Of a stretch of DNA of 64,000 bases, positions 17,401 to 48,864 are shown piece by piece. Position numbers and translations under genes: made by a program. The stretch's first letter is position 1. Each line of letters starts with the position of its first letter. The notes beneath the pieces are model-generated. The model saw only the letters and a program-made list of their open reading frames with translations, was not told the DNA's origin and did no database searches. Source of the stretch: Oegoconia quadripuncta (taxonomy: Eukaryota > Arthropoda > Insecta > Lepidoptera > Autostichidae); assembly GCA_949316235.1 (NCBI GenBank), contig OX438748.1:29010836-29074835 (forward strand), read 5' to 3'.

Positions 17401-20400
17401 TGTAAGAAATACTCTTTTGTAACATTACACGTTAAAATGTAAGAGGTTATTATTGAAATATTCTAAAACCCAAGGAGAAATCTTGTGATTTCAATTTTGC
17501 AAAGTTATACTCTTCATCCGAACACTATTTAATTAATACCTTCAGTTCCGTAATAGGAATTTCACAGAGGAGTTTTCGTTTGTATTATTATTTAAAACGT
17601 TCAATGCAGCTGAGAAAACCAAGAGGTAGAAATAGGGGCATCATAATTCTCTGTACATCTTAACTGTTTTTAACGTGGAAATTACCATGGGGTCCAGAGG
17701 CTCCCTCTAATTACAAGGAGCTTTCAGAGGTTGGTTGAAGTTACTACAGCGATCTACGTGCTAGCATTTTACCTCGCTCAAATGATTTTAATAGCCATTC
17801 AGCAAGGTAACATCGCCAGCATCCATTTTCCACGTTCACTCCATCACGGATCCTATTTACATCAGTAACCTTCCAATCAAAGCCTTATGTGGTAAATATA
17901 TTTTTTCCAGATAATCCACTGAACTGCGACTGTCTGATGGCCGGTTTTGCTCGCTGGCTTCGCGAAGCTGAACATCTCTCACAAACCGACAAAGCTGCGG
18001 CAGTTTGTGCCACACCACCACATTTAGAAGGGGCTCTCATATCAAGACTATCTAAGAACAAACTCTGCGACGACTTCGAACATATTGACACAAAAACCAA
18101 CGATATTAACCCAAACGATGATTATAATAAAGTATTGGAGACTATAGACGTGCAAGAGAAGATTCTCGGTTCAAATGTGGGTGTGGATGATATGTATGTT
18201 GATAAAGATGGTTTGGATGATGATTTATACGATGAAGAATTAGATGTACCATCGGAAGAGGATTTACCTATTTCTAAATCAAAGGTATTACAAAGCTTTT
18301 ACATTTTATCTAAACTGTTAATTTGGGCTACATCTTTTTACTTCCAGATCACATTCCGTGTTTTTTAAAAAACTATTTTTTAAAGAATATTTGGACAATT
18401 ACACCAATTATCTAGGCAAAGTCTGTACCATAGATACTAGATAATATAAATATTTATATAAACAATCATGACTGAGGATTATATATAATATATTTATATA
18501 AACATCCAAGACTCTGGAATAAATGTTCGTATTAATCACACAAACGCATCACACAAACGCGGGATTCGAACTCGCAACCGTTGGTTTCGCCGATAGGGTC
18601 ACTATCCACTACACCAATCGGTCGTCATTATTTATAGAAATGGATATGAATTTCCGTGTTCATTTTAGAAACGCTTTAATTTTACTGACCAAAATATTTT
18701 TACTCTCAATTTTGATATAATAGTTATAATCTTCCAGGTTCGTCTTTTAGACACGTGGTACGATGATGAAGAGGTCCATTTATCTTGGTCATTGGATCCT
18801 CCATCGACGCGTCTATACAGGTGCACTGGAGTTACAGTAACGAGGGTTGGTGGCCTCAACAAACACGTTGCTTGTCATAGAGCTCCACCTGCTAATGTGG
18901 TGCTAAGGGGTTTGAAGGTTGATCCAGCAGAGCTATACACGTAAGTTTTTAAATGCGACATTGATGATCAATTAAGTACTATATGTTGAAAATTCTAAAG
19001 GCAATGGTTAAAATAGAGATCTAATGCTTTCTTGTGGTCATAATTTAAGTCGTATAATGTACAAGTTATACAAATTAAATTGCACCGAATCGCCAACGCC
19101 CTATGCAGGGAGCAGGGAAAATACGGTTTGACCTCGGAAAAACGAATAACCGCGATTTTCTTGAAACATTTAATAAATGTTGTAAATGTAGTAACAATTG
19201 CTAAATTTTAATAAGCATTTGTAAGAAACGCAAGTACTAAGTAACTAAATAAGCTAAAGTAGAAAAATGTGTTTCTTTAAAAAAAAAATGCTCAATTTGA
19301 TGGGTATTTCTTTAAATTCAAAACATTTAGGGAAATTATCATTACAAAATATTAGTTCTCATTTTTATTTCTTAAGCAATGCAGCTCGACCACATTTACA
19401 GCTAAAACACATGTATGTTAAGTATAACATGCTTAGTTTTTTCCATCAATAAGTTTACTGTGTTTAACAAAAGTCTACCTAATGAAAAATCAGTTAGTAT
19501 TTATTGTTATTAAGATACAAATTAAAAATAGAGTTTTCTAAATAAATCTAGACTAAGCGCTCGTTATTTTAGGCTTAATTATTCAAAATTACATCTCTAA
19601 TATATATCTATAAGATATCAATTATATAAGTCGGTTCTGAATTATGTCTAGCTAGGCTAATTTTTTACCGTATTTGCCCTGGGCTATTACCTTACTTATA
19701 AGGGTCACTTTGTTTTCCGTCTGTCTGTTTGTCCGTGTGTCAAGCCCATTTATTAACCCCTGCCATAAAGTGAGTAGGTAAAATGACATTAAAACAACGT
19801 CATGTAAACGAATCAAAATAAGAGGATAACGTACAACAGAATTTAAATGTAATCAATGGTTTTAATCAGTTTGCAAAATTCCTGAATTTAAATTACATAC
19901 TTCCAAAATAATTCTAACTCATAAATTACATTAAAGTAAACTTACCCAAGTAATCTAATAAAATTAATTATGTGCTAAATGCGAGCTTATGATGTGAAAC
20001 AAACTTTAATATGAACGGACAAAAAATTTCGTTTAACCACGAAATCCGTTTAAAAAGTTAGAGTAAATATGACCCTCTCAAAGTTGGATATCGCGGACGG
20101 GCATTAGAATAATATACTGGGAGAGAAGAGGTCACTTGAAACAATTTAGTCGAAATTAAGTGAGTCATTTTAGGCTTTTGTGAAGAGAAATGTAAATTAG
20201 ATCGGAATAAAATTGCTAGAAAATTTTACAAGGGTTTAATAAATTCAAATTTTCAAGCTTAGTTTCTGATCCTGCAAAGGAGTGACCGAATTTGTTGACA
20301 TTTAATTTTATGCCTTAAAATTTTATTTTAGATGTCATTTGCCAAAGCTTTAGAGAAATAACAAGCTACTAATTGTATAACATACATACCAATATATCGT

Positions 20401-22026
20401 CACGATCTTTATCCCAGATGGGGTGTTCAGAGAAATCCCAAACATTAGCCTTTGGGTGTTCCAAACATTAAAAGTTTAATGCTTGAATCAATACCCATGG
20501 TTCACATTTCGTAATTTACAGAAAGGCACACGTGACCGGGTGAGCTTATCGATTGACGTTAAAATGTACAAATCTAGAGATATTTTTTCGGTGGATAGTC
20601 CATTTGGAAAGTTGCCTCTTAAGACACCCACGGGAAGAGACGGGTTGGGTCTATTCCTTTACGTGCCGAAACCACACAGTCTACTAATTAAGACTTTTTT
20701 TTACAGATTCTGTATAGCGCTAGAAGAGATGGATAACACCGATACTCCTCTGGCACTAGTATTAGGGTGTGCAAAACCACAAATAATCAGACAACGTGCT
20801 GCGTTCGGAACTGTCATACCAGTTGCTGTCACTCATGCACCTACTGTGGAGTCTTTGAGGTGAGAAAGATGACGAGATTCTGTTGATGTTTCTTCCATTA
20901 CAATTGAGACTAACTTCAATTGTGTATAACTGAGGTGAACCGAAGCCAAAACCTAGAACTTTACTCTTCAAAAAATTATTAGGCTCTGAATAATGGACCA
21001 TGATAGCCATGAGCCAAGAGAATCACGATTGTTCGAATCACCATATGCTTATGCTTATATAGCAATTGACTTGCTTATTTTCTCAAGTTGTTTACATATT
21101 TAACCTGCTCCATGTTTTCGTGGTCTAAGCATTCTTATTTCAGAGCAAAGTTTACTTGACCCACATTTTGATAGGTGTGATGAAAATATTTATTTATTTA
21201 TTTATCATTTATTGCACACAAGAAAAAAATATTTTTATTGTTTTTTTAAGGGTTTTAGTGGTAGTCCTGTCCTTTATGGTGATTTTATTATTGTCCTTTA
21301 TGATAAAACGTAATTAGGCGTTTTATCATAAATTCGGATTTATCGCCGTGCTCTTTTCATTATATTTTACCTTTTTACTCCGGGTATATTAAGTGAATTT
21401 CATTCTGTTGTAACTATTGATATAATTTAAATGGAATATGTGTTTATTCTTGTTTCAGAGTCTCCGAAGTTCGCTCCAACGTCACTAGCGATGGAGTCTT
21501 GACAGTACGTATTTCTGTCACGGGACTTACACCTAAAAGACAACAATATGTGTTAACTCGCACTCAAAGACTCTCCGCTCCAGATGTCAGATATATTCCC
21601 TTCAACAACTGTTACGTTGTGGTTGCAATACTATCTAGAAATTCTTTAGTAGCTCAGAAAGATACTCCGTGCCAATCGACTCTTGATATATCCATGGAAG
21701 GCTTCCTACGAGGGCCTTATGAAGTCTGTGCAACTTTATCAAAGTATAAAATCGATGAAATGCGTCCAATATGCGTCGTACCACAATTATTAGAACCGAT
21801 CGGCTCTATGGAAATGAAAGCTGGTTTTAAAGGTTTGAACACAGCGTTAGTCGGAGTGGCCCTTGGTTTGATGGTTATAGTTGTTGGTCTGGTTTGGTTT
21901 GTGAGGAAGATGCTGAAGAAACCAGCAGATTTTGAGACGCATCATAGATGCTTTAGGCAGGAGCCTGTGCCGGAGGAGACTCCAAGAGCTAGTTATGTTA
22001 TGTTGACAGCTACATCTAAGTTGTAA
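8248..22026 (+). CDS. LRR / FN3-like single-pass membrane protein, 5' partial
   Basis: Ten exons join in frame: 8248-8464, 9541-9659, 12249-12392, 12466-12613, 13947-14075, 16340-16531, 17911-18284, 18738-18940, 20707-20859, 21459-22026. They give 748 residues plus a TAA stop. Order (numbered from the first residue seen): possible LRR N-cap Cys at 23, about ten 24-residue LRRs at 68-316 (LxxLxLxxNxL), an LRR C-terminal cap with Cys 322, 324, 349 and 369, an acidic linker at 376-436, an FN3-like ectodomain at about 442-680, a membrane helix at about 686-708 with RKMLKK as stop-transfer, and a 40-residue tail. Such proteins act in cell adhesion or as co-receptors at the surface; that role is inferred from architecture. 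I do not recognise the orthologue. The signal peptide exon is missing and should lie upstream. All junctions are GT-AG. Confidence 0.9.
8500..8790 (+). repeat. 5S rRNA-derived SINE
   Basis: The head carries AGTACTTGGATGGGTGACC (inside 8550-8577), the conserved 3' internal part of 5S rRNA, after a GGCGTAGTCATATTTGCTAT stretch also found at 25665-25745 and 38719-38800. The body holds CCCGCGTGGTAGATTATG, CCCAATGAGAGG, a CCCAACAGTGGG-like stretch and a GATGATG-like end, shared with 39130-39392. Located in the first recognised intron of the LRR gene. Confidence 0.65.
9131..9437 (+). repeat. SINE family A
   Basis: Near full-length plus-strand copy ending in (TTA)n. The tRNA-like head has an extra segment of about 28 nt between GTTTGGTGTAGTGG and a second AGTGGTTAGAAACTCTGC, so the A-box region is duplicated or interrupted. 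The B box GGTTCGAATCCCGC is intact. Intronic. Confidence 0.7.
9541..9659 (+). CDS. LRR gene exon, repeat 2
   Basis: Acceptor TGATTTCCAG, donor GTAAGC. Encodes two LRR half-modules with NLDRLDLSNNKIHTLDPNSF, a textbook LRR. Phase 1 in, phase 0 out. Confidence 0.9.
9969..10406 (-). CDS. Unassigned antisense ORF in LRR intron
   Basis: A 145-codon open frame on the strand opposite the host gene, the longest frame in the window that no known exon or repeat explains. The frame stays open upstream of this ATG to about 10465. Its middle (about residues 50-105) is rich in Pro, Tyr and Lys and not low-complexity, with PFRCPKYPILLPPSHEQY. The last 40 residues look like chance translation. I recognise no family, signal peptide or membrane segment, and no splice sites mark it. 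It may be a retrocopy fragment or a chance frame. Confidence 0.2.
   Translation of the reverse strand: MDDACMISHHKHYRASSMLHCVWDRYDATDNAVHVAFRSSKNLYFCHRFIKMKNPFRCPKYPILLPPSHEQYEYIKYPAATDDFQKYVPKVLLNRGESEYLPYTTGTAQYRYTHTHNLIVNMKSIYFSLYIFTYPRPWSNRTEEY
10407..11560. other. LRR-gene intron, nothing recognised
   Basis: AT-rich intronic sequence. No shared repeat, no hairpin above background and no coding frame with domain support. Confidence 0.4.
11561..11895 (+). repeat. tRNA-derived SINE, family C
   Basis: Full-length family C copy. tRNA-like head GCCTCCGTGGCTCAATGTAA with B box GCGGGTTCAATTCCC, then GCATTTTAAATG, CTAGCTACCACCATC-like, GAGATAAGATAGCCAGTCCC, TCAGTACGCTTCCACCTTCG and CACTTAACA, ending in an A run. 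Family C is the commonest repeat here (about 17 pieces). Intronic. Confidence 0.75.
12249..12392 (+). CDS. LRR gene exon, two repeats
   Basis: Exactly 144 nt, that is two 24-codon LRRs, phase 0 at both ends. Encodes KNLTYLDISDNQLTNISPN and a second repeat with LAVLKLRGNLL. Acceptor TTGTTTCAG, donor GTAAGA. NLT is a potential N-glycosylation site. Confidence 0.92.
12466..12613 (+). CDS. LRR gene exon, two repeats
   Basis: Separated from the previous exon by a 73-nt intron (12393-12465), the only short intron of the gene. Encodes MLRDLDLSSNALEGPLGP and LATLQLSDNTFASIRRGAL. Acceptor GTTTTTAG, donor GTAAGT, phase 1 out. Confidence 0.92.
13059..13197 (+). pseudogene. Ty1/copia polyprotein C-terminus
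   Basis: The forward frame reads a QEQLADMFIKPMY motif, then LLKLCE-stop-LGL, the end of the RNase H region of copia-type retrotransposons (consensus QxADxxTKPL then LGL). An in-frame TAG and the lack of upstream pol show that it is dead. The purine-rich AAAAAAGATGAGGAAA at its end looks like a polypurine tract, followed by TGTTAAGG as a possible 3' LTR start. Intronic. Confidence 0.6.
13197..13360 (+). mobile_element. Possible copia LTR remnant
   Basis: Begins TGTTAAGG directly after a polypurine-like tract and contains the hairpin-like pair CACTTCCAGTATAG and TTTACTGGAAGT. No second LTR is present to fix its end; the 3' limit is where a different repeat begins. Confidence 0.35.
13361..13525 (+). 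mobile_element. Partial copy of TIR element H
   Basis: Matches the right-hand part of the 569-bp element at 19113-19681 (GATACAAATTAAAAATAGAG, then ATTATGTCTAGCTAAGC and the end ACCGTATTTTCCCTG). The left half is missing. Confidence 0.6.
13630..13870 (-). repeat. SINE family C, head missing
   Basis: Minus-strand copy from the A tail (TTTTTTTTATGCACAACGGG on the plus strand) to the CTACCACCAACCAA segment. The tRNA-like head is truncated. Intronic. Confidence 0.7.
13947..14075 (+). CDS. LRR gene exon, two repeats
   Basis: Acceptor ATTGTTTCAG, donor GTGAGA. Encodes NLTNLNLHNNQIDVLEDYAF and NLTHLVLSHNEIVAVSG. Two NLT glycosylation sequons. Phase 1 in and out. Confidence 0.92.
14181..14497 (-). 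repeat. SINE family C, full length
   Basis: Minus-strand copy from the A-tail side (GTTTTTTATGCACAACGG) to the tRNA-like head (GTGGCTCAATG reversed near 14483). B box reversed as GGGAATCGAACCCGC. Starts about 105 bp downstream of a coding exon. Confidence 0.75.
14911..15187 (-). repeat. SINE family A
   Basis: Minus-strand copy. Reversed B box is GGGATTCGAAGCCGC (one change from the functional consensus), and the head contains a small duplication (TTTTGGTATACTTTTGGTAC). Ends GACGACCTG. Intronic. Confidence 0.7.
15215..15392 (+). repeat. Fragment of 5S-SINE or RTE-tail repeat body
   Basis: Contains TATCAGCTACCAGACGTCCA and then CCCAATGAGAGG, GCCCCAACAGTGGGACGTGT and GATGCTGATGA, the body seen in the 5S-derived repeats at 8500-8790 and 39130-39392. 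No 5S-like head is present. Confidence 0.45.
15786..15809. other. Perfect 10-bp hairpin in intron
   Basis: Arms TCAAAGAGAC and GTCTCTTTGA around a GTTT loop. No terminator or RNA-gene context. It may be the core of a short inverted-repeat element. Confidence 0.4.
16340..16531 (+). CDS. LRR gene exon, last repeats
   Basis: 192 nt, that is 64 codons' worth, phase 1 in and out. Encodes NLIHLDLSHNFLRSLSAE, GLSELLLHDNDISMVDDG and the start of the cap (RGLARFTVE). Its third positions are more GC-rich than in the neighbouring exons. Acceptor CTGTTGCAG, donor GTAATG. Confidence 0.92.
16532..17910. other. LRR-gene intron, nothing recognised
   Basis: No repeat shared within the window. A moderately GC-rich patch near 17280-17385 (GGGCGTCGAGACGCCACCC) is the only compositional feature. 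Confidence 0.4.
17911..18284 (+). CDS. LRR gene exon, C-cap and acidic linker
   Basis: Acceptor TTTTTTCCAG, donor GTATTA. Encodes the LRR C-terminal cap (NPLNCDC, then VCATPP and NKLCDDF, four Cys) followed by about 60 residues dominated by Asp and Glu. Phase 1 in, phase 0 out. This is the largest internal exon of the gene. Confidence 0.92.
18391..18626 (-). repeat. SINE family B
   Basis: Minus-strand copy starting about 110 bp after the exon end. Reversed B box GGGATTCGAACTCGC and a head ending GACGACCGATTGG. A short internal duplication of the ATATTTATATAAACA segment is present. Confidence 0.65.
18738..18940 (+). CDS. LRR gene exon, FN3-like part 1
   Basis: Acceptor AATCTTCCAG, donor GTAAGT. 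Encodes EEVHLSWSLDPPSTRLYRC and ELYT at the junction, the usual start of a fibronectin-III fold (a Trp in strand B, a Tyr near strand F). Phase 0 in, phase 2 out. Confidence 0.9.
19113..19681 (+). mobile_element. TIR element H, full length
   Basis: A 569-bp element with 15-bp imperfect inverted ends (CAGGGAAAATACGGT and ACCGTATTTGCCCTG). No coding sequence of note. A full-length inverted copy lies at 22879-23415 and a partial one at 13361-13525. CAGGG-type ends suggest a hAT-like MITE, but no 8-bp duplication is visible. Confidence 0.65.
20404..20695 (+). repeat. Dispersed repeat E
   Basis: About 290 bp starting ACGATCTTTATCCCAGATGG and ending TACGTGCCGAAACCACAC. Matches 61584-61835 along its whole length and parts of 33537-33735. 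Opposite-strand relatives are at 7386-7500 and 7925-7980, 47283-47510 and 48975-49140. It stops only about 12 nt before the LRR-gene exon at 20707. Confidence 0.6.
20707..20859 (+). CDS. LRR gene exon, FN3-like part 2
   Basis: Acceptor CTTTTTTTTACAG, donor GTGAGA. Encodes FCIALEEMDNTDTPLALVLG, the end of the FN3-like strand pattern, and a linker. Phase 2 in and out. The acceptor lies right at the edge of a dispersed repeat. Confidence 0.9.
21186..21235 (-). mobile_element. Non-LTR 3' tail fragment
   Basis: (ATTT)n followed by CATTTATTGCACACAAGA; reversed, this is the TGTGTGCAATAAATG end typical of the family at 7750-7915. Only the last 50 bp remain. Confidence 0.4.
21459..22026 (+). CDS. LRR gene last exon, membrane helix and tail
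   Basis: Acceptor TCTTGTTTCAG. Encodes the membrane-proximal ectodomain with paired Cys, the hydrophobic helix LVGVALGLMVIVVGLVWFV, basic RKMLKK and a cytoplasmic tail ending ASYVMLTATSKL, then TAA at 22024-22026. The SYVML stretch offers a tyrosine-based sorting or phosphorylation site (inference). Confidence 0.93.
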
Positions 22027-25745: not shown

Positions 25746-26793
25746 TTCCTGGTGACTTCAAATTAGCTTTCCAATTAATTTTCTGGCTTCTAATTGGGGA
25801 GGTATTGGCAACATTTCAAAGGATTTTTGAGAAAACGATTTTATGTAGATTTTATGGTATCTTACAAATCAAATCTTGTGAATTTCTTTCTTTGTGATAT
25901 TTAAAATATAAATAATTCATTTATACCGTTAGGCCTTTACTTGGCGTATACTTATTTATATATTATATTGGGTATCTTTCTCAGTTTCAATTATTATTAT
26001 CGTTCAGCCGGTAGATGCGCACATATTACTACACATATTAATACAATACTCCCGATTAACTGGTTCTGAAAAGTGTCGTTTGCCATATTTTATCAAGTTT
26101 TTAAAAGCAGAATGGGCTGGGAGGTTCCGATGGGACAGGTCCAGGAGGTCGTTAAGAGCCAGAGTTGCTTGGCCGTTTCTCCAATTCTGTTGAAATGGTG
26201 AATCCATTGCCCGGAGTGAACTGCAAGGAATTAGGCTCCGACTAATTCCTACCAATGATGCTGCTGCCTATCACTGAACTTTATCATCCTGCTGCGATCA
26301 TGGCAAATCCTCCTTTGAGAAATCGATCAAGTCGCTCTATGGAAGAGACTTATGTCCAGTATTAAAGCTAAGTAAACCAAATGTGAAATGCGACTTAACA
26401 TTTTGTAGGATGTTGATGTGAATTTTCATCGCAATTCTTACCTTTGGAGGTATGACATATCATGAGTGCAGTACATGCGCGCGGGTCGAAGACGTCACGG
26501 TCTCTTAGCTACACCTGATGGACTGCGAACTGAACACATCAGAAACTCACCCTCCGTTAGATCTACGACATCATTACCAATTTTACAAAAGAGATCCAAT
26601 GTTGCTGTTTGTGAATGTTGTTAATCTTTGCTTTATTTGTCAAATAATTTAGATGTGTTTTAGTTTAAAATTGTAAACTTATAAATTGTAAATCCTAAAT
26701 AAATTAATCATTTCGTGTGAGTATACCAGTAAATCTGTAACAGAATAAGTATAACCACAGTGACAAATATCAATCACGAACTGCGTTTACGCA
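25746..26793. other. Spacer and upstream region of the lysozyme-like gene
   Basis: No repeat is recognised. I looked for GGGRNNYYCC-type kappaB and for GATA sites in the last 400 bp before the TATA box and saw no convincing one. Confidence 0.4.
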
Positions 26794-26824
26794 TATAAAT
26801 ATTAGAAATCACAATTCATTCAGT
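26794..26824 (+). promoter_or_regulatory. TATA box and initiator of the lysozyme-like gene
   Basis: TATAAAT at 26794-26800 and TCAGT at 26820-26824, the arthropod initiator consensus. With the A of TCAGT as +1 the TATA box starts at -28, the usual spacing. This leaves a 5' UTR of only about 18 nt before the ATG at 26840. Confidence 0.7.
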
Positions 26825-26839
26825 CTAACCGTTGCCGTT

Positions 26840-26975
26840 ATGGAGTTCGGACGTGTCGTTCATTGTGTTATTTTGGCTTTATCACTAACGATAATAGAGT
26901 CAAAAGTTTACGACCGTTGTCATTTGGCGCGGGAACTGGAAAAACTCCACTTTTCAAGGACCTTTATCAGCAATT
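26840..26975 (+). CDS. Lysozyme-like exon 1
   Basis: ATG, signal peptide with the hydrophobic core VILALSLTII, then KVYDRCHLARELEKLHF and FISN. Donor GTGAGT after the first base of the Trp codon. The split inside Asn-Trp is the classic first intron position of c-type lysozyme genes. Confidence 0.9.
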
Positions 26976-29900
26976 GTGAGTGCGTTTTTCTTTTATTTTG
27001 GTTACTGACGGACTAAAATCTCACCTGATTACCATGACGAAGGTAACTGGATGTTTTGTATTTTCCTTTGGCCAGACAAAGAAATGGGTCCAATAGCGAA
27101 TACAGGTCTCATAATGAGTATAGATTTTACGGGCTTCATGAGCTTGGGCACAGCATCGTCTCACTAGAGAGGGCGTGGGCCAAAATCCACCACTGGGGCC
27201 AGTCTAGTGGCCACCTGACAGTCAATGTTTTCAAGTCGATCCTGTGAACTTGCCTGCCTAAAAATGCCACCAATTGGTGTTTATTCTTAATAATTGACCA
27301 GATTGGGTATGCGACTGCCATTCCTTCTGTAATCAAGATGGCCTTGTCGAAGGAATGTCGATGGTCGCCGTGGCTGCCAACGGCCAGCCACTGGAAGCAC
27401 GCTTGAATATTTCATCAGGACAACGAATTTAGTCCTTAAGCCATTTAATGTATGGGAAAAAATCCAAGTATATTTATTGTACACGGAGTAACAAGAAAAA
27501 GGTAAAAATAAACATGAACACTGAAACAGATCCGAATACCCCTCTACTCTCCATAACTATGAAATGTGTTTGAGGTCCGAACCGTGATGGGGGTGCCTAA
27601 AAGACAGGCAGCATTACCCTGTTAAATGGCAAAGGTAATTCGCTGCCCGATAGCTGTCAGCGCTTTCGTCACCTGTCATCTTTAAAAAATCGTCAACTGT
27701 CAACTCAAACTCGAAGTCAATCTTGCCTCTTCAAACACCAGTATTTGTCAGAATTACTACAAAGTAGTTAGTTGCCATTAGTTAAAAAAGTTAGGTGAGA
27801 TCGATTTGCTAATATAGGCCTAAGATTAACATTCATTTGTTTGCTGTTGTGAATGATATTAAATTGTAGGTGATTAGTAATACACACACACATATACCTA
27901 CGTCTCGGTTATGCATTGTATTGTATCATGTAGTCTATTGTGTTGGCTGTCAATAGATTTAATGTGCCATGTGTATTTTTTACGAAGTTTCCTGTTACTA
28001 ATCAGAGTGCCAGATGTTTCATGGGTTTTTACATTCAACGGTAAGGAAATAATATACTTGGAAATTTTCAAAAGCTATTTTTAAGCGTGGTGAGTAGCAC
28101 GTCACCTCAACAACACCTGATTAAGATGACGCTACAGGTGGAGGAGCGCTCACTAAAACCCTCAACTTATTTTGATAGCCGATCGACGGTCTGCTGCTCT
28201 CCACTGATGTATGCTCTTACGCTGTTTTACGACATCCACGGGGAAGAGATGTGTTGGTCTACTCTGCGGGATGGTTCCCGGAAGAAAAACAGCTTGTATA
28301 ATTGGTTGATACTATTAAATTATTATACATATATATATTATTTCGGACACTTACACCAATAATCTAGTTCCAAACTAAGCAAAGCTTGTACTATGGATAC
28401 TTGATAACGGATAAACATACATAAATATTTATATAAAAATCCATGACTCCGGGATAAATGTTCGTACCTATTCATCACAAAAACCTTTACCCGTCACGGG
28501 ATCCGAACCCGCAACCGTTGGTTTCGCTGACAAGATCACTATCCACTACACCAACCGGTCGTCGATTGTTTTGTTCATAGTTTCTTGGGGTCTTCCTTTT
28601 ATAAACACGCTTTTCGTTATTATTAGCTCCACTTCCTTTGGAAGTCAATTTTAACCTATTTGTAATTGTCGTATAGAAATGAAACTTAGTACGTATATAT
28701 AGTTTGGATGACAATATTATAATTTGGTATCTTAGGGTAGATCTGATAATGGACCCAGGAGGTGGTTGGTGGAACTCTTCTTTGTCTACTGGTAAACCCC
28801 TTGAACTGATAATAAAATATAATTCGATTTGACGAGTCCAATATATTGCACTTGGTGTCAACTGTCTGATGATGGAGCCAGGAGGGAGGGAGTTTTTTGT
28901 TTTTTTTTATTACCTATTTGTATATAAGTAATAAAAAAATCTCACTAAGACACCAGTCGCGGCGCAACCAGTCGCACTACCAACAAAATATAACGAATGA
29001 GTTTTTTTTTTATATTAGAGAGAAGTGGTCATTACTTCATCGACAAGAGCATAGCTCTTAAATTGAAGAATGTATATTACTCATGTTACAATTATAGTCT
29101 ATATAGGTTAGGATCCAAAATAAATCTGTATACACTAATCTATCTGTTTGATGTAGGTGTCATGTTTACATCGAATATGTTGGTGAAGATCGAAAGTCAT
29201 GCATATTAAAGGCCGTCCCCATTACACCTGCCTGACGACCGTATCGGCTTATAAAAACTTTTCGGCGAAACCTTTCCCAGTTGGATGAAAAAGTTGGTAA
29301 TTCGATGCTTCACATTAAACGCTCAAGTTCATACCAATATAGCATTTATTTCATCGAGTTACGGGCTAGATCATCATGTATTGAATATGGGAGGGTGTTA
29401 ACTTTATATACATTGCTATATGTAAATAGACAGTTGCCGTTTTTGATTTCCGAGACTGAAAAGGTAAAACGGAACCCTTTGGCCCATATCTCAGTGGAAC
29501 TCCATGGCGGCACCACCGGTCTTGAACTTCCTTACGATTAACACCAAAAATTTCACAATTTCAAAATTAACAGCTCCAGCTGTACATCATCAGGGTCAGT
29601 ACGGGTCCACCTTCGGCCTCATCTTCACTTAACATCAGGTGTGATTGAGGTCAAGTACTAATCCGTTGTGCATAAAAAAAAAACATCATCAGCCCGTAAA
29701 CATCCCACTGCAGAGATATAGGACTTCCCTCGTATAATTTCCAGCTGTACGTAAATGCATAATGTGTTGTATTTGTTTGTTGCTCAATCACGGCAAAACG
29801 GATGAACGGATTTGGATAAAATTTGGTATATAGGTAGACCATACCCTGGATTAAAACATAGGATACTTTTTATCCCGATAATGTGAACAGTTCCCGAGGG

Positions 29901-32900
29901 ATAAACAATTTTCCGCGATAAAGCTATTTAACGCAGGCGAAGCCGCGGGCGGAAAGTTAGTTACTTATAACTAACTTTAGGGCCAACTTACTTAATTTTT
30001 CGGGATACATGTTCGTTTACGGCACTCTGCCTGAACCACATATAGGACTAGCCCACTCTAGTAATTTTCCTCCTACCTTTCAGTCCTCGAATTCAAATTA
30101 ATTCAAATTTATTCAATGGTTTCTTCAGGGGTGTGCCTGATAGAGAAAGTAAGTGAGAAAAACACCTCGGCGCTAGAAGTTAAATCGTCGAGAAAGAAAT
30201 ATTACGGACTATTTCAGGTGAGACGTATTTTAATTTTTTTATTTTAATTTTTTTCCGCTTCGGATTCGAATTGATGTTCGAATCACGCGTTTATATGAAG
30301 AATACAGACATGTGTTCACGAGTTATGGATGTTTTTCATTTAGCTTTAAATGTATTTATTTACTAAAATCTATTTGTGTAGTTTATTAACCATCTGGTAT
30401 TATGGATACCAGGCCTAGATGCTTACTGTGGACCTAGATGGCGCTGTGTGTATATGCAAAGATATTTATTTATTATTCCAAATATATTACGTCAAGTAAT
30501 TTGTAATATTATGTATATCTAATGACTTATTTATAATTAGCTTTTAGATTGCTGGAGTGCAGGGCAGAGTGATTTTTTGATTTATTCTGTATTTAAAAAG
30601 ATATCTTAATTTATCCAACGAGGGCGACACTGGACGGATTTGCTTGACGGAAACATCCCACTGCAGGGATATACCTAGGCGTTCCCTCGTATAATGAGGG
30701 AGGGGGCCATTGTCCACCAAGCTGGCCCATTGCGGAATGAGGACTATATTAGGAGCCCATACTGTCCCACTGCTGGGCAAAGGCCTCCCTCCTTCCTCAC
30801 CACGGCTCTCTATTGCAGGCCTCCTCCGACCAGTTAGTTAGGACTACACATGCCTTAGAATTTTTATTTCTCCGGCATAAATGATTTTCCTTCACCGTTT
30901 AAAAGCAGTCGAATAAATGCATTAATACTGGACGGAATAAACTCGCTCAATGATTTTTCTTTCTTTCAAGATATAATCGCGGTATTCGTCCCCATCTCCG
31001 CACTCACACACCATCATCTTCATGCAGTATTATATCAACTAATCGCTAAGGATCCATTTAACAGTATTCCAGCCGTGACTTTTATTATTTGGCAAAATAA
31101 AATAGTCAATTTAAAGTTTGTCCTATAGCAAAAGTGATACCTTTTTAATTTGACCACCATAAACCACGGTAAAATTTTCTCAAGTAATATCAGACTTGCA
31201 AGATGGTGATATAGGTGTAGATATTGGGTTATCAGTGTGAAGATGTGACGTCATTGTGTATATATAAATGTGTATCTAATGTGTTGATTAAAATTTAACT
31301 AATGATAATGTCTGAATTAATTACAGATAGGAAGTGAGTGGTGTAAAGAAGGTCGGAAAGGTGGCAAATGTGACATTAAATGTGAAGGTGAGTAATTTTA
31401 CGTGATTGTAAAGCGGTCTACCTTTATAATGCTGCCCGTCCACGACAGTTTTTTTGTAGCACCGATAATGTTTGGTGTGGCGGTTACCAACTCTGGCCAC
31501 TATACTGAAAAGTTGCGGGTTCGAATCCCGCTAGGGGCATAAAGTTTGTGTGATGAATACGGACATTTGTACCCGAGTTATGGATGTTTTCATTTATAAT
31601 AAGTATTTATGTAGTATTTCAACCATTTGGTATCCATAACGCACAGTTGCTTACTGTGGAACTATGTAGATGGCGCTGTGTGTATGTCTAAGATATTTTT
31701 TTTTGTTATTTTATAATCGGGCCGATTTTTTCGTCAATATTTTTATCACTGATATTGTGACCGACGTTTTGTAGGACATGAGCATTGAAATATTGCAATG
31801 AGTACGTTCCATTTTTCTCGTACAAAAAATCGGTCACCGATTGTCGGTTGTGGGCGGGCAGCCTTATGTTTATATTGAAGTTATGTTTATATGTATGTAA
31901 GTTGTCCGTTTCAAAATTACTTAAGTATTTTTCAAACAATTGCTCGTATATGAGCGAGCTGAAATTTGGCGTATTTATCCCTCCGGTTGGGTTGGAACAA
32001 TGGAGACTATGGAATAGACAATAAAGAGTTTACTAATCATTTGCGAGAGATCCACTGATATTGGAACAAAGCTTTTAGAAATTTTCTTATTTAGATCCTG
32101 TAGACATCTAACCAAAATTATAAATGCGAAAGTTTGGATGTTTGTTTGTTTGTTACTCAATCACGGCGAAACAGCTGAACGGATTTGGTATGTAGGTAGA
32201 ATATACCCTGGATAAAGACAGACTGTTTATTCCGATGGAGTGAGTAGTTCCCGCGGGATAAACAAATTAAACATATCCGCGGTGAACTTTTCTTTAAATA
32301 CATTTATAATTACCATAAAAGGGAAACTATGTATGTGAAGTTATTACAACTTTTCTGACACATCATATCACCAGGCGCTGGACGTCCACTACTGAATAGG
32401 GAAAATGGAGTGGGTGGAAAATTTCTGACTATTACACGATAAGCAAGGATGGACATGAACCGCTCGGAGAATACCCCGTCTAATTATAATATATTTTCTT
32501 TTGGTCAATTTCAAAGTTTCTCGCCCGTTCATTTGTGGGCAGTCAAGTGAAGGATGGTGATTGTATGATGAAGATTTGTGATGTTATTATGGGCGTAGCC
32601 AGCCATAGGCTCAGAGTCGGGCAGCAGTCTAAAATAATATATAACTAGCATACTATATCCGCGGTCTTACCTTTATTAAAAAAAAAATGTATTTATACAT
32701 AAATACATTTTTTTGTAAATAAATACTGTGGATACTACAGTATCCACAACACAAGCCTAATAGTGGCTTACTGTGGATGGCGCTGTGTGTATGTCTAATG
32801 ATATTTATTTATATTTATTTAAATATTTTAAATTTAAGATTTGCTGAATGAGGACATCAGGGATGATGCAGTGTGCGCAACCAAAATATTTGAGCAGGAA

Positions 32901-35617
32901 GGGTTCAAATACTGGCCGAAATGGGAGGCTAGGTGCAAGGGTCACACGCTACCTGACATTGAAAAGTAAGTGTTAAGTTTGTATAGCAAATTACTGGTCT
33001 AGCGAGATTTTATGGCATTGTATGGTATTAATGTTTTCTCGCTCGACCAATGTAGTTGATTTGGAATTATATGTCAAAAGCAAACACCCTAAAATAGTGA
33101 GTATAAACATCTTATTTATTACGTAAATCAAACAATTTCATTGATTGAAGGACAAAGATATAGTATTCCTCAGATATAGTAGACCTCAGTATTATAGTAA
33201 TTGATAATGTATATACTTGTTGATACTTCGTACTATATATATGTATATTGGATAGGTTATGTGGTGTATTTATTTATAGATATATTATTTTATTTTTTAA
33301 TAAAATTATTTTCAATTGTTGTGTACACTATTTTCTGCCCAATCTAATAAACACGATGTATCTCTAAGGTTTGCTGGTAGCAAAACTCTATCGGAGTTAA
33401 GCTCGCCTTTGTACATTTTATAAACAATGCATATTTCTGTAACAATTTAGTGTACAATAAAGATATTAAGATAAGATAAGATATTAAGAATTAGGGCACA
33501 GTTTAATAAAGAGTTGAGTGGTCGCCATGGAAACCCTTCACTCTGTGGTCTGAGGCAACAAACCTTTCGACAGATGTGTACCGTGACAGGGGTGAGCCCA
33601 TCGCCATAGTGTAAATCTATATATGTTTTTTACACCTAAAAAACTATGGAACTTTCCTCCGAAAGTTCCATAGTATTCTTTTACGACATCACGGGAAGAG
33701 GCAGGTTGGTTCTATTCTTTTTGAGTGCAGAAACCAGACAACACGTGCATAAAAATTATTAAATAATATAAAGACAATTGTGGTGACATGTGCCTCTAGT
33801 CCATCTCATAAAAAAGATTACGTTTGAAATAAGCGTAATAATCGTTTATTTGAACCATTTAATGACACACACACATGCATGCGTGAATGTGTAAATAACA
33901 AACGAACACAGTGAAATTGGGAGATAAAAATATACGGTTCTTAACCGCCTCCGTGGCTCAATGTAAACTACATTGGGTTTACGTTTCGGAGGTCGCGGGT
34001 TCGATCGGGGTACATATTTAGTACTTGGTTTAGTTATATTAAATGCCCGCCTGGCTAGCTACCACCATCTTATCTATATCTGCTGCCAAACAGCAATGTT
34101 GATAGCATTGTTGTGTTCCGGTTGTCAGAGATAAGATAGCCAGTCGCCCAAATAAGATGGGGTTTCCGGGTCAGTACGCTTCCACCTTCGACCTCATCTT
34201 CACTTAACTTCAGGTGTGATTGAGGTCAAGTACGAACCCGTCGTGCTAAAAATAAAAACAAGGAATTCCTTAAATGCTAAATTAATGTATTGCCTTTTTT
34301 AGAATAAAGCGTTTACAAATAAACTGCTATCAAGTGTTTATAAAAAACCACCATTAAACGGAAACTATGTGCCCACTATTATAAAATTTCTGACTATCTA
34401 GATGCGTGGACATGAACCTTTCGGCGATATCCAGTATATACCTAGTATTTTTTTATGATTGTCTGGATTTGCATTTGACCACAATTTCACCTGATAGAAA
34501 GTGACGATGTGGTCGAAGATGAAGCACGCGATCCCAGTAAATGCCTATTCACTCTACTCTTGAAGATCCCAAGGTTGTAGGATTCAGGAAAAACTGACAT
34601 ACATACCGCCCCTAGCTTCATGCCAAAAGAGTTATTATCCATAGGAAAAGTCATAACTTGTTAATTATCCCCTCCTAAATGCCCCCCCTTCCGCCTCCAT
34701 TTAAATAGATTTTGTCCACAATAAGGGTCTTTCATAATTGGTCGAAGTTTGACTTAAAACTTTTATGGGGTTAATGTTGAAATTCGAATCATTAAGTTAA
34801 TGACGTCCTATTTGGTTAACCGCCTTTGTGGGATTTGGCGCTGGTTTAAAATTATTTGATTGTATTTTCCAGTAACATGCGATAACTTACTATATTTATA
34901 CTAGTTGTTGCCAGCGACTTCGTCCACGTATGTTACTGGTAGCCTACTGTCGAAATTGGAACATCGCTAGCCTTCTGCACCCTGTCTCCAAGCTGCGACC
35001 TGGAACATGTACTATCTAAGACGTGAACTTATATTCCAGGGCTTGTTTTTCTTAAAATAATATAGTTTATTGCCATAGTGTTGATTATGAAGTTGATATA
35101 AACGTATGCAGTATAGAAACCGACAGTGTACTGTGTACTGCAGGGGCTTTCCCTCGTATACTGAAGGAGTATGGGCTATAGTCCACCATGCTGGCCCAAT
35201 GCGAGTTGGAGACTTCACGTACCTTAGAATTTTTATTTCTCAGGCATGAAGGTATCCTCACGATGTTATCCTTCACCGTTTAATACCGATAGACATACAA
35301 GAGCACAATACTGTAACCTATTGTATAGACCTCCTTGCCGCAAATACGTTTATGAAAATAATGTTTATAACATGTGTATAATATTATATAACAATCTGCC
35401 TGACGAAATAAAATTGGTTAATGACAAAATGTTTAAAATTCGATTGTTACAATGGCTTTAGGCAAAGTGTTTCTATGATATTAAGGAATATTTAAATTAT
35501 CAGAATGCTATGTAAAGTGTCACAAATCATATTTTGCACATCTGCATGCAGATTGAATACATGATTCCTAAATTTCTTACCAGACCTTGTAAACTGTACT
35601 CTGGCAATTAAATAATT

Positions 35618-35657
<40 letters not shown>

Positions 35658-36116
35658 AAGAGCAGTCGCATAAATGCACATAAGTAATATAAATAAATTT
35701 AAGAACACATTGGTACATGGCCTGCCTGGGAATCGAACCTGGATCTCTCAAATTGGGAGACCTTATCTTAACCGCTGAGCCACCGATGCTCATGATTTGT
35801 GTAACTGGATTATATTCTTCTTCTTTGCGGGGTACCAGTAAAGGTGTTAAATTTCTGGAGGTAATGACAATTCCAATGACAATGCTATTCACGTGGACGG
35901 ATAATATTATTACAATGTTTAGTTCCTCGGATCGTTTCAAAATTTTCCATTTATGATGAATGAGTTTATCATTTTTTTCTTTATTCTAGATGTGCAGACT
36001 GGCAGCATCCACCTAGCAGAGCGTCACCTGCCAGGGATAAGAGGACATTACATGAAAAAATTTCTTTTCCCAGAAGATTTAAAAGATTCATTTTCAAAAG
36101 GTTACATAAAGATTAG
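26840..36116 (+). CDS. Non-catalytic c-type lysozyme-like protein with cationic tail
   Basis: Exons 26840-26975, 30129-30217, 31327-31387, 32839-32965 and 35990-36116 join to 540 nt, 179 residues. Residues 1-21 are a signal peptide; the mature protein starts KVYDRC, the usual c-type start. All eight lysozyme cysteines are present (27, 48, 81, 90, 94, 108, 128, 139), with NWVC, YYGLFQI and LPDI landmarks. The catalytic Glu position (after NWVCLIEK) is Val 53 and the catalytic Asp position (before YGLFQ) is Tyr 70, so hydrolysis is not expected. Non-catalytic lysozyme-like proteins are known in Lepidoptera, where they bind bacteria or peptidoglycan in immunity; that role is inferred here. The last Cys and a 40-residue basic tail come from exon 5. 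It is secreted, probably to hemolymph or gut. Confidence 0.9.
27000..28085. other. Lysozyme intron 1, part without recognised repeats
   Basis: No coding or repeat structure seen. A few TGTCA words cluster near 27655-27710 but not densely enough to call a regulatory site. Confidence 0.35.
28341..28565 (-). repeat. SINE family B
   Basis: Well-kept minus-strand copy with reversed head CTACACCAACCGGTCGTCG and reversed B box GGGATCCGAACCCGC. It begins with CGGACACTTACACCAATAAT and lies in lysozyme intron 1. Confidence 0.7.
29593..29682 (+). repeat. SINE family C, 3' part
   Basis: Only the last 90 bp remain, GGGTCAGTACGGGTCCACC to GTTGTGCATAAAAAAAAAA. 5'-truncated, as expected of incomplete reverse transcription. 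Confidence 0.65.
29755..29965 (+). repeat. Dispersed repeat D
   Basis: About 210 bp with CTCAATCACGGCAAAACGG, TGGTATATAGGTAGACCATA, GGGATAAACAA and the end GGCGAAGCCGCGGGCGG. Copies at 32113-32285, 47933-48150 and 61905-62050. No TIRs and no coding sequence; its class is not clear. Confidence 0.6.
30129..30217 (+). CDS. Lysozyme-like exon 2
   Basis: Acceptor GTTTCTTCAG, donor GTGAGA. Completes Trp 46 and reads VCLIEKVSEKN, then KKYYGLFQ. This exon carries both positions that hold the catalytic acids in active lysozymes; here they are Val 53 and Tyr 70. Confidence 0.92.
30250..30475 (+). repeat. SINE family A, degenerate
   Basis: The tRNA-like head is scrambled (ATTCGAATTGATGTTCGAAT), but the body is clear (ATGTGTTCACGAGTTATGGA, AACCATCTGGTA, GATGGCGCTGTGTGTAT) with a TTTA tail. 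It starts about 30 bp after exon 2. Confidence 0.6.
30640..30925. repeat. Dispersed repeat fragments in lysozyme intron 2
   Basis: Contains GTCCACCAAGCTGGCCCATT, CCCACTGCTGGGCAAAGGCC, CCTTAGAATTTTTATTTCTC and CTTCACCGTTTAA. The first and last blocks recur at 35125-35285. These phrases are common in lepidopteran RTE-tail repeats. Confidence 0.45.
31327..31387 (+). CDS. Lysozyme-like exon 3
   Basis: A 61-nt exon; acceptor AATTACAG, donor GTGAGT. Encodes IGSEWCKEGRKGGKCDIKCE with three of the eight cysteines. Phase 0 in, phase 1 out, the usual lysozyme pattern. Confidence 0.9.
31468..31706 (+). repeat. SINE family A
   Basis: Plus-strand copy with B box GCGGGTTCGAATCCCGC, a body with TGATGAATACGGACATTTG and GATGGCGCTGTGTG. 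In lysozyme intron 3. Confidence 0.7.
31720..31865 (+). repeat. Repeat block shared with 45530-45665
   Basis: Contains ATCACTGATATTGTGACCGA, GTTTTGTAGGACATGAGC, AGTACGTTCCATTTTTCTCG and TACAAAAAATCGGTCACCGA. The block at 45530-45665 matches it nearly base for base in the same orientation. No TIR is recognised. Confidence 0.55.
32113..32285 (+). repeat. Dispersed repeat D
   Basis: Second copy of repeat D (GTTACTCAATCACGGCGAAA, TATGTAGGTAGAATATACCC, CCGCGGGATAAACAA), 3' end shortened. In lysozyme intron 3. Confidence 0.6.
32690..32825 (+). repeat. SINE family A, 3' part
   Basis: Body fragment with GTGGCTTACTGTGGATGGCG and CTGTGTGTATGTCTA and a (TTTA)n end. At its middle lies a near-palindrome, TGTGGATACT-AC-AGTATCCACA, that replaces the normal sequence. 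It ends just before exon 4. Confidence 0.6.
32839..32965 (+). CDS. Lysozyme-like exon 4
   Basis: Acceptor TTTAAATTTAAG (AAG is a weaker acceptor), donor GTAAGT. Encodes DLLNEDIRDDAVCATKIFEQ, then YWPKWEARCKG and TLPDIEK. The donor overlaps a TAA that would end the frame at Lys 138. Splicing instead leads to the last cysteine. Phase 2 out. Confidence 0.88.
33340..33480 (+). mobile_element. Non-LTR 3' end
   Basis: GTTAAGCTCGCCTTTGTACA and GTGTACAATAAAGATATTAA, followed by a (GATAA)n-like tail. Same family as 7750-7915. Confidence 0.55.
33537..33735 (+). repeat. Dispersed repeat E with internal hairpin
   Basis: Contains GTGACAGGGGTGAGCCCATC and CACGGGAAGAGGCAGGTTGG as in 20404-20695. At 33643-33674 there is a perfect 13-bp hairpin (ACTATGGAACTTT, loop CCTCCG) not found in the other copies. 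Confidence 0.5.
33941..34260 (+). repeat. SINE family C
   Basis: Near full-length copy in lysozyme intron 4. Head ACCGCCTCCGTGGCTCAATG, B box shortened (GCGGGTTCGATCGGGG), A-rich end AAAATAAAAACA. Confidence 0.7.
34330..34445 (+). mobile_element. KAYYKI-type non-LTR fragment
   Basis: The frame reads HYYKISDYLDAWT then stop, the same C-terminal peptide as at 4140-4477, with a shortened 3' UTR. Confidence 0.45.
34448..34545 (-). repeat. SINE family C, degenerate 3' part
   Basis: TTTTTTATGATTGTCTGGAT then GCATTTGACCACAATTTCAC and AGTGACGATGTGGTCGAAGA, a worn copy of the family C tail. Confidence 0.45.
35125..35290. repeat. Dispersed repeat, same phrases as 30640-30925
   Basis: GTCCACCATGCTGGCCCAAT, ACGTACCTTAGAATTTTTAT and CCTTCACCGTTTAATACCGA. 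In lysozyme intron 4. Confidence 0.45.
35300..35660 (+). mobile_element. 5'-truncated non-LTR tail with (TTTC)n end
   Basis: The frame to the stop near 35461 reads ILYNNLPDEIKLVNDKMF, the conserved C-terminal YN-LP motif of insect non-LTR reverse transcriptases. The 3' UTR (TTTTGCACATCTGCATGCAG, TACTCTGGCAATTAAATAA) matches 42290-42440. A (TTTC)n microsatellite at about 35615-35657 forms the tail. Confidence 0.6.
35712..35800 (-). repeat. tRNA-like repeat head
   Basis: Reversed, it reads GGTGGCTCAGCGGTTAAGAT and GGTTCGATTCCCAGGCAGG, good A and B boxes of a polymerase III promoter. It lacks a proper acceptor-stem pairing, so it is a SINE head rather than a tRNA gene. Confidence 0.5.
35990..36116 (+). 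CDS. Lysozyme-like exon 5, eighth cysteine and basic tail
   Basis: Acceptor TTCTTTATTCTAG. The first base completes Lys 138; then come Cys 139, ADWQHPPSRASPARDKRTLH and a last segment rich in Arg, Lys and Phe ending at TAG 36114-36116. The phase (2) fits the exon 4 donor and restores the fourth disulfide, which is the main support for this exon. About 8 Lys or Arg against one Asp fall in the final 19 residues. Confidence 0.8.
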
Positions 36117-36138
36117 GTTTGCAAAGTGTTTTATTAAA
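36117..36138 (+). other. Possible poly(A) signal of the lysozyme-like gene
   Basis: ATTAAA at 36133-36138, a common variant of AATAAA, 17 nt after the stop. An AATAAA at about 36417-36422 is the alternative, on the far side of a SINE head. Confidence 0.4.
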
Positions 36139-36535: not shown

Positions 36536-36854
36536 TTCCTGGACGTCCGTCCACTCTCCACTCGAGACTTTAATGCTCCACCGGTAGACACTTCTTCGAG
36601 CTATGTGCCTTGCATATTGCCACTCCAACTTACTAATCTAGCTAAGTCAGTGAATTTCGTTCTCCTACGGATTTCTTCATTCCCGATTCGATCACGTAGT
36701 AAAACGCCGAGCATCGCCCTCATCTATAATTCGATAGCATTACCACAAACACAAGGATACAATTCTAATTATTTTAATTAGAATAACTATAAATTGACAG
36801 TTTGAAAACCCCCGAGAACATTGATGGTACAAATGATTATATCCGTATCAGCTC

Positions 36855-36940
36855 ATAATGACAACTTCTCAAAATGACAACCGCTCGCTAACTCCAACTT
36901 CTCGGAATGACAAGTTCTCGGAATGACAACTTGAATTGAT
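36855..36940. repeat. Degenerate short tandem repeat
   Basis: Four to five imperfect copies of a word like AATGACAACTTCTCGG (ATGACAACTTCTCAAA, ATGACAACCGCTCGC, CTTCTCGGAATGACAAG, TTCTCGGAATGACAAC). Confidence 0.5.
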
Positions 36941-48272: not shown

Positions 48273-48600
48273 TTCGAGAATTTAATATTCAAAGACTGCT
48301 CTAAGAATCTATTTACCTACCTAAAATCAGTTAGGAAGTTGAAGGTTACCTAATAATTATAATTACAGCAATACTGAAAGTCAATTACGTACCAAAACCA
48401 ATTAATGGAAAATCACTTCAATATTAATTGAGTGCCAATGTTATTTTGGATCTCATTTAAAGACATGACACGAGAGATAGTTATACCAGTATAGTTACTA
48501 TAACAATTTCTGTGCTTTATTGTAGACTAGCTTCCCGCCCGCGACTTCGTCCGCGTGGACGATTTTATCAAAATCGGTTGAGCATAAAAATTTTGCCTAT

Positions 48601-48864
48601 ATGTTAATATATAATATATGTATAAAGGGAGTAATTGAGAATAGACGATGGAAAATGCTGGGGCACCTTATACGACACGATGATTTCATCAAAACCATAA
48701 TAGAAGGAAGAATAGAGGGGAAAAGAAAAAGAGGAAGACCGAGAATAAGCTACATGCAGCAAATAAAAGAGAAGTTGAACGTCGTGTCGTATCAGGAGGT
48801 CAAGAGGAAGGCGGAGAGCAGAGAGATATGGAAAAATCTCCACCGACAAGAGCATGGCTCTTAA
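48601..48864 (+). pseudogene. RTE-type reverse transcriptase C-terminus, open frame
   Basis: An 87-codon open frame with RRWKMLGHLIRHDDFIKTII, GKRKRGRPRISYMQQIKEKL and AESREIWKNLHRQEHGS. The W-LGH-RH--F and basic GRPR motifs are the standard C-terminal end of RTE and related non-LTR proteins. No stop interrupts it, suggesting a fairly recent 5'-truncated copy. It is inserted within a repeat D-like element whose ends lie at about 48525 and 48960. Confidence 0.65.

What the first reader, a model, noticed from the sequence alone, without database searches (positions are those of the whole stretch)
35990..36116. Separate last exon fuses an antimicrobial-peptide-like tail to a lysozyme fold
Exon 5 gives Cys 139 and then 40 residues not found in standard c-type lysozymes, which end about one residue after this Cys. 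The last 19 residues hold eight Lys or Arg, one Asp and five aromatic residues, with the run FPRRFKRFIFKRLHK. A dead lysozyme that binds bacteria, linked to a membrane-active cationic segment, would be a two-part immune effector. An RDKR stretch at 153-156 could be a furin-like cleavage site releasing the tail.
Basis: partly seen in the sequence, partly recalled or inferred. Interest (0 to 1): 0.88.

Follow-up and report, generated by a model that had tools for sequence, protein, structure and literature searches.

The report
Lepidopteran lysozyme-like protein with basic tail
This is a moth or butterfly version of a known antibacterial lysozyme look-alike whose end carries a positively charged tail with a conserved, probably protease-cut site; the gene is real and of a known kind, but the "antimicrobial peptide" stretch seen here is not conserved between species.

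Summary
A five-exon gene (26840-36116, +) encodes a 179-residue c-type lysozyme-like protein; exon 5 (35990-36116) gives Cys139, the eighth domain cysteine, and a 40-residue tail. It groups with Antheraea mylitta lysozyme-like protein 1, of a named class of antibacterial proteins reported to lack muramidase activity. Hen-lysozyme Glu35 is kept; Asp52 is Tyr or Phe in all 28 informative clade rows.

The tail is the clade's normal structure, not a private fusion: 27 of 30 rows keep S-P-x-R followed at once by x-[K/R]-R, x varying (D, F, M, L, K) while the furin-type R-x-[K/R]-R stays. Identity is 0.80 in the domain, 0.75 in the proximal and 0.27 in the distal tail. Distally, basic charge (median +7) and a modest helical amphipathicity (mean z 0.8) persist.

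Best reading: a secreted, catalytically impaired, wall-binding protein with a convertase-processable basic extension. An antimicrobial tail is possible, not shown. My ten literature searches listed no paper on this site.

The parts
26793..26800 (+). TATA-like element ATATAAAT
   Evidence: pattern found; function inferred
26820..26824 (+). TCAGT, initiator-like element 27 bases downstream of the TATA-like element
   Evidence: sequence; motif meaning recalled
26840..26975 (+). exon 1: start codon, presumed signal peptide (about residues 1-21) and first residues of the lysozyme domain
   Evidence: gene model; Pfam Lys starts at residue 22; signal peptide inferred, no predictor run
30129..30217 (+). 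exon 2: holds both catalytic positions
   Evidence: gene model
30143..30145 (+). Glu51, equivalent of hen lysozyme Glu35, retained
30200..30202 (+). Tyr70 in place of catalytic Asp52
31327..31387 (+). exon 3
   Evidence: gene model
32839..32965 (+). exon 4, ends inside the codon for Lys138; reading on into intron 4 gives a stop at once
35990..36116 (+). exon 5: last base of codon 138, Cys139, 40-residue tail, stop
36018..36044 (+). conserved tail core RASPARDKR (residues 148-156)
   Evidence: 27 of 30 clade rows keep SPxR, all 27 followed by x-[KR]-R
36033..36044 (+). furin-type motif R153-D-K-R156
36133..36138 (+). ATTAAA, possible polyadenylation signal, starting 17 bases after the last base of the stop codon
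   Evidence: function inferred

Best explanation
The gene is the window species' member, most likely the orthologue, of lepidopteran lysozyme-like protein 1 (A. mylitta LLP1 clade): a secreted c-type lysozyme fold that keeps the catalytic Glu and groove tryptophans but has Tyr for the catalytic Asp, so it probably binds cell-wall glycan without cutting it efficiently. Its last exon supplies the eighth domain cysteine and a flexible basic extension. The conserved part of that extension ends in a furin-type site (R-x-[K/R]-R), at which a secretory-pathway proprotein convertase probably trims the variable basic distal peptide; whether the trimmed peptide or the untrimmed basic tail adds antibacterial or surface-binding activity is open. 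Shown: gene structure, fold family, residue changes, tail conservation, conserved motif. Inferred: secretion, loss of catalysis, wall binding, cleavage, any activity of the tail.
For: Pfam Lys E=1.8e-26 over residues 22-139. Homologue search: 86 proteins at E up to 0.001 among 96 candidates; the best 13 rows are 65-71% identical over 84-99% of the query, all lepidopteran by name, P0005 being A. mylitta lysozyme-like protein 1. Quick tree: window inside a 27-row clade with P0005 (SH-aLRT 92), beside a 43-row clade (98); both together 99. Glu35 equivalent kept, and Asp52 equivalent Tyr (20) or Phe (8), in 28 informative rows of 30; P0047 and P0076 lack that exon, and the letters that one search shows for P0047 there come from unrelated sequence. 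27 of 30 rows keep SPxR and all 27 continue with x-[K/R]-R: DKR 21, FKR 2, MKR, LKR, FRR, KRR 1 each; with the rest of the tail shuffled, mean 2.2, maximum 8 of 27 in 2000 rounds. Further R-x-[K/R]-R sites distally in 21 of 27 rows: 29 sites, 7.2 expected from shuffles. AlphaFold2 model of P0005: domain blocks pLDDT 95-98, residues 151-179 about 55-57; top Foldseek match in the PDB is B. mori lysozyme 1gd6. Exon 5 in Danaus: P0063's odd end is a frame-shifted reading of the same tail exon, 29 of 32 residues recoverable against at most 16 in 300 shuffles.
Against: No transcript, proteomic or biochemical data for this species. Shared descent inflates motif conservation and the shuffles do not correct for it; some rows are near-duplicates in the tail (P0002 and P0035). 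Three of 30 rows lack the SPxR site: Battus P0021 (tail ends PPRD), Papilio machaon P0022 (6-residue tail), and P0024, a short-contig row from an unnamed source (an RGKR elsewhere). P0063 and P0086, damaged gene models of the same kind of protein, were left out of that count. In the sister clade 0 of 45 rows have the site at this position. R-x-[K/R]-R also arises by chance in very basic sequence (the 7.2), and cleavage was not tested. The tree has few columns and many open forks. The own-genome search for paralogues did not run, so strict orthology is not proven.
Confidence: 0.7

Rival explanations
1. The tail stays attached and acts as a disordered polybasic arm that holds the protein on anionic bacterial surfaces (LPS, teichoic acid) or on heparan sulfate; no cleavage needed.
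For: Basic charge is retained distally: net 0 to +10, median +7, in the 22 full rows (5 of the 27 rows with SPxR, P0025, P0026, P0035, P0047, P0076, were left out there as partial, odd or near-duplicate; one search gives them +3 to +8). Distal lengths are 15-34 in all 27. The tail is modelled at low confidence, as expected of a flexible stretch. Sister-clade tails are mostly basic too.
Against: Charge alone would not need a fixed R-x-[K/R]-R next to SPxR in 27 of 27 rows; Euphydryas P0017 has distal net 0 and Leptidea P0018 +3.
Confidence: 0.35
2. One reading: a convertase frees an antimicrobial peptide from the tail, giving a two-part immune effector.
For: Conserved furin-type site; basic distal peptide; weak helix 156-173 in the P0005 model at pLDDT about 55; a modest amphipathic excess that is largest at the helical angle: mean z 0.79 over 27 rows, 17 positive, at 100 degrees, against 0.40 at 120, 0.23 at 80, and negative at 140 and 160; 5 of 27 rows reach z 2 and 4 of 27.
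Against: Distal sequence barely conserved (0.27, shuffled about 0.16); per-row helical moments spread from z -1.6 to 3.0, window 1.5, and rows are related; further R-x-[K/R]-R sites inside the peptide in 21 of 27 rows would fragment it.
Confidence: 0.25
3. The distal tail is a spacer or pro-segment with no activity of its own, removed during secretion; selection acts on the cut site and on length only.
For: Conserved site followed by fast-evolving, length-variable sequence; truncated tails in Papilio machaon P0022 and Battus P0021, though P. machaon also has a tailed relative (P0076).
Against: Distal identity is above shuffles (0.27 against 0.16), basic charge is retained, and there is a modest helical amphipathicity; an RGKR/RGRR element recurs.
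Confidence: 0.27
4. Mis-joined gene model: exon 5 belongs to another gene or the tail is a translation artefact.
For: Intron 4 is about 3 kb with a TTTC repeat, and there is no RNA evidence here.
Against: Related proteins carry the same tail in frame; exon 4 alone lacks the eighth domain Cys; the Danaus tail exon can be recovered from a faulty model.
Confidence: 0.02

Closest known systems
Antheraea mylitta lysozyme-like protein 1 (A5A142; P0005)
   Same: Probable orthologue: same fold, same Asp-to-Tyr change, same Cys139 and SPxRDKR, same length 179
   Different: Distal tail differs: TAMARGKRHITRRVRRGRRSVRY against TLHEKISFPRRFKRFIFKRLHKD
Sister clade of lepidopteran lysozyme-like proteins (Manduca 'lysozyme isoform X1' P0038, Plutella P0039 and others)
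   Same: No Asp at the catalytic position in 43 informative rows of 45; tail after the last Cys, SPxR in 27 of 45 rows
   Different: Tail starts PDL or PGL, not PDW; no x-[K/R]-R straight after SPxR (0 of 45); 20 of 45 hold a Y-[YF]-G motif
Tail-less lepidopteran lysozyme-like proteins (B. mori 'lysozyme-like protein 1 precursor', P0073)
   Same: Catalytic Asp replaced (Ser)
   Different: Ends at the last Cys, no tail
Classical lepidopteran c-type lysozyme (B. mori lysozyme 1gd6)
   Same: Fold: TM-score 0.94 on the target length, rmsd 1.2, for the P0005 model
   Different: Has the catalytic Asp; no tail
Drosophilid lysozyme-like proteins such as P0069 (D. simulans)
   Same: Short tail with SPxR after the last Cys in 12 rows; catalytic Asp replaced by Asn
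   Different: Those 12 tails have 14-20 residues and no long basic part

Membership tests
c-type lysozyme / alpha-lactalbumin fold family (PF00062) | profile match and eight cysteines | tested here: met
   93.2 bits against cut-off 27; eight Cys in the domain (27, 48, 81, 90, 94, 108, 128, 139), a ninth, Cys9, in the presumed signal peptide
c-type lysozyme, enzymatically active | catalytic Glu35 and Asp52 | tested here: not met
   Glu kept, Asp replaced by Tyr70
lepidopteran lysozyme-like proteins (LLP), A. mylitta LLP1 clade | phylogenetic placement with P0005 | tested here: met
   27-row clade, SH-aLRT 92 (below the tool's starred level of 95), inside the tailed clade, SH-aLRT 99; quick tree, few columns, many forks open
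lepidopteran lysozyme-like proteins (LLP), A. mylitta LLP1 clade | lack of muramidase activity, antibacterial activity, immune induction | not testable with these tools
   reported for ALLP1/BLLP1 in passages that cite Gandhe 2007; that paper is not held
proprotein-convertase substrate | R-x-[K/R]-R in an exposed segment | tested here: met
   motif conserved; the segment lies after the last domain Cys and is modelled at low confidence in P0005; exposure inferred
proprotein-convertase substrate | actual cleavage | not testable with these tools
   needs mass spectrometry
linear cationic antimicrobial peptide | segment conserved between orthologues | tested here: not met
   distal identity 0.27 against about 0.16 in shuffles
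linear cationic antimicrobial peptide | cationic, amphipathic helix | tested here: inconclusive
   cationic: met (median +7); helical moment mean z 0.79 over 27 rows, per-row spread wide

The most novel reading that the evidence does not exclude
A lepidopteran family of catalytically crippled lysozymes serves as carrier for a secreted, convertase-released, fast-evolving cationic peptide: the cut site is kept while the peptide itself diversifies, as expected of an immune effector in an arms race; the reported antibacterial activity of lysozyme-like proteins without muramidase would then rest partly on this tail.
Probability: 0.22. Interest if true: 0.6.

Novelty: new member of a known kind. Interest (0 to 1): 0.33.

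Why it matters
Lysozyme-like proteins are reported to act on bacteria without cutting peptidoglycan. A basic tail with a conserved, probably used, cut site gives a concrete part to test: compare full-length, domain-only and tail-only proteins. It also means that recombinant work with and without the last part of the protein may not agree.

Tried and rejected
Tail-only homologue search (residues 140-179): no candidate shared three words with the query, so it says nothing about tails in other proteins. First AlphaFold2 run on a 31-row alignment gave a poor model (mean pLDDT 53) and was dropped for an alignment of 111 of the 139 proteins. NF-kappaB-type pattern in the 1 kb upstream: one site against 0.37 expected from mononucleotide shuffles and 0.66 per kb over the window; GATA pattern: three against 3.4 per kb over the window; no sign of induction either way. 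Own-genome search for other lysozymes: four requests unanswered, so paralogues in this genome were not counted. Gandhe 2007 and Chapelle 2009 are not held. Ten literature searches listed no paper that by its title and start of abstract is about this tail or its cleavage site; the library is open-access only, one search showed 20 of 25 papers, and I opened passages of five papers. Fusion artefact and pseudogene were considered and rejected (open frame, GT-AG introns, same tail in related proteins). No dN/dS was computed, as no DNA of close relatives was at hand.

Full report
Gene model. The five exons 26840-26975, 30129-30217, 31327-31387, 32839-32965 and 35990-36116 join in frame with GT-AG introns (phases 1, 0, 1, 2) to a 179-residue protein. 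Pfam finds a c-type lysozyme domain over residues 22-139. Exon 4 read into intron 4 stops straight after Lys138, so the eighth domain cysteine, Cys139, comes from exon 5; the exon is part of the gene, not an optional add-on.

Relatives. The first homologue search gave 86 proteins; the alignment-based search found 296 and listed 120; 139 distinct proteins in all were in hand. P0005 is A. mylitta lysozyme-like protein 1. A quick maximum-likelihood tree of 124 domains (of 140 rows, 13 odd or damaged ones left out by hand and 3 as too short) puts the window in a 27-row clade with P0005 (SH-aLRT 92), next to Diatraea and Scirpophaga (88), and this clade beside a 43-row clade (98); the two together have 99. 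Many forks are open, and the window has a long branch (0.21 against a median of 0.093), so the family of the source species is not settled.

Catalysis. The tail counts use 30 rows (window, P0001-P0026, P0035, P0047, P0076: the 27 of the tree, P0007 among them, plus P0025, P0047 and P0076). In the 28 of them that hold the exon, the Glu35 equivalent is kept and the Asp52 equivalent is Tyr (20) or Phe (8); P0076 lacks the stretch, and the Glu and His that one search shows for P0047 come from unrelated sequence. Trp108 and Trp111 equivalents are kept in 29 of 30, the exception being P0035. The groove is thus largely kept while the Asp is lost: binding without efficient cutting is the likely outcome, by inference.

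Tail. Of the 30 rows (P0063 and P0086, damaged gene models, not counted), 27 hold SPxR and all 27 go on with x-[K/R]-R: DKR 21, FKR 2, and one each of MKR, LKR, FRR and KRR. Shuffling what follows SPxR gives a mean of 2.2 and at most 8 of 27. Misses are P0021, P0022 and P0024. Beyond this site, 21 of 27 rows have at least one more R-x-[K/R]-R (29 sites; 7.2 expected by shuffling). In the 22 full rows (P0025, P0026, P0035, P0047, P0076 left out) mean pairwise identity is 0.80 (domain), 0.75 (proximal tail) and 0.27 (distal; about 0.16 when shuffled), and distal net charge runs from 0 to +10, median +7 (all). Shuffles do not correct for shared descent.

Amphipathicity, for and against. Helical moments of the distal parts give per-row z-scores from -1.6 to 3.0, window 1.5, with 5 of 27 at 2 or more. 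A rerun over angles gives a mean z of 0.79 at 100 degrees (17 of 27 positive, 4 at 2 or more; 0.65 in the 22 full rows), 0.40 at 120, 0.23 at 80, -0.33 at 140 and -0.29 at 160. So there is a modest, helix-specific excess, which favours a membrane-active or surface-binding helix to some degree, though the rows are related and single rows vary widely. Selection is plain on the proximal core with the cut motif and on basic charge; on the peptide itself it is weak.

Sister clade and flies. Of 45 sister-clade rows, 27 hold SPxR, 0 have the adjacent cut motif, 29 have an R-x-[K/R]-R somewhere, 27 have three basic residues in a row, and 20 have a Y-[YF]-G motif. Twelve drosophilid rows have a short tail with SPxR. 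The SPxR element may therefore be older than Lepidoptera; homology of such short pieces is not proven.

Exon boundary elsewhere. The Danaus chrysippus model P0063 lacks Cys139 and ends in an unrelated-looking peptide. Read one base over, that peptide can encode 29 of 32 residues of the D. plexippus tail (300 shuffled targets: mean 10, maximum 16). It is a frame-shifted reading of the same exon; the residues before it look by eye like the end of an intron, which would put the acceptor at the same place. Chilo P0086 also departs right after exon 4 and was not examined.

Structure. AlphaFold2 on P0005 with 111 rows: mean pLDDT 87, blocks of residues 21-140 at 95-98, 141-150 at 70, 151-179 at 55-57, helix 156-173 at low confidence. 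The top Foldseek match is B. mori lysozyme 1gd6. The window's own protein was not folded.

Literature, passages only. [quoted passage not shown] PMC3011828 says such proteins of B. mori and A. [quoted passage not shown] PMC1559613 reports a lysozyme-like transcript lacking one or both catalytic residues from bacteria-challenged A. mylitta; whether it is the P0005 transcript is not said in the passages seen. PMC4436361 reports two LLPs of S. exigua raised in midgut after Bt toxins. PMC11447326 was seen only in its reference list, which names a 2018 paper on IMD control of LLPs. Gandhe 2007 and Chapelle 2009 are not held, so whether they discuss the tail is unknown. The ten searches listed nothing that by title and start of abstract is on this tail or site.

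Verdict. A real, apparently intact gene and a member of a known antibacterial class. The detail worth following is the conserved convertase-type site at the border between a conserved and a fast-evolving basic segment. The two-part effector idea remains possible but is not favoured over a trimmed or surface-binding tail.

Noticed in passing
window 12204-22023 (+): Exons of a leucine-rich-repeat protein: LRR_8 in 12204-12572 and 16267-16602; 17811-18365 and 21421-22023 gave no Pfam match, the latter with a membrane-helix-like stretch by eye; that all belong to one gene is a guess.
   Followed up: partly
sister-clade tails, e.g. P0029, P0034, P0051: 20 of 45 tails hold a Y-[YF]-G motif (such as SYYGLRWL, near the end by eye) that resembles the domain's own KYYGLYQI strand; chance, or a self-mimic that fills the groove?
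   Followed up: no
P0022 (Papilio machaon), P0021 (Battus philenor): Two papilionid rows that group together (SH-aLRT 97) have a 6- and a 12-residue tail; tailed rows exist in Papilio (P0023, P0076): a natural tail-loss comparison, if the gene models are right.
   Followed up: partly
P0063 (Danaus chrysippus), P0086 and P0047 (Chilo suppressalis): Public gene models that appear wrong at exon boundaries; P0063 is a frame-shifted tail exon, the other two were not examined.
   Followed up: partly
clade rows, positions 51 and 70: The catalytic Asp is replaced by Tyr or Phe while Glu35 is kept in all 28 informative rows; why Glu stays is unexplained.
   Followed up: no
window 48526-48861 (+) and 35228-35458 (+, in intron 4): Open frames that look by eye like ends of LINE reverse transcriptases; no Pfam match.
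   Followed up: no
window 36852-36932: Five 16-base tandem copies downstream of the gene.
   Followed up: no
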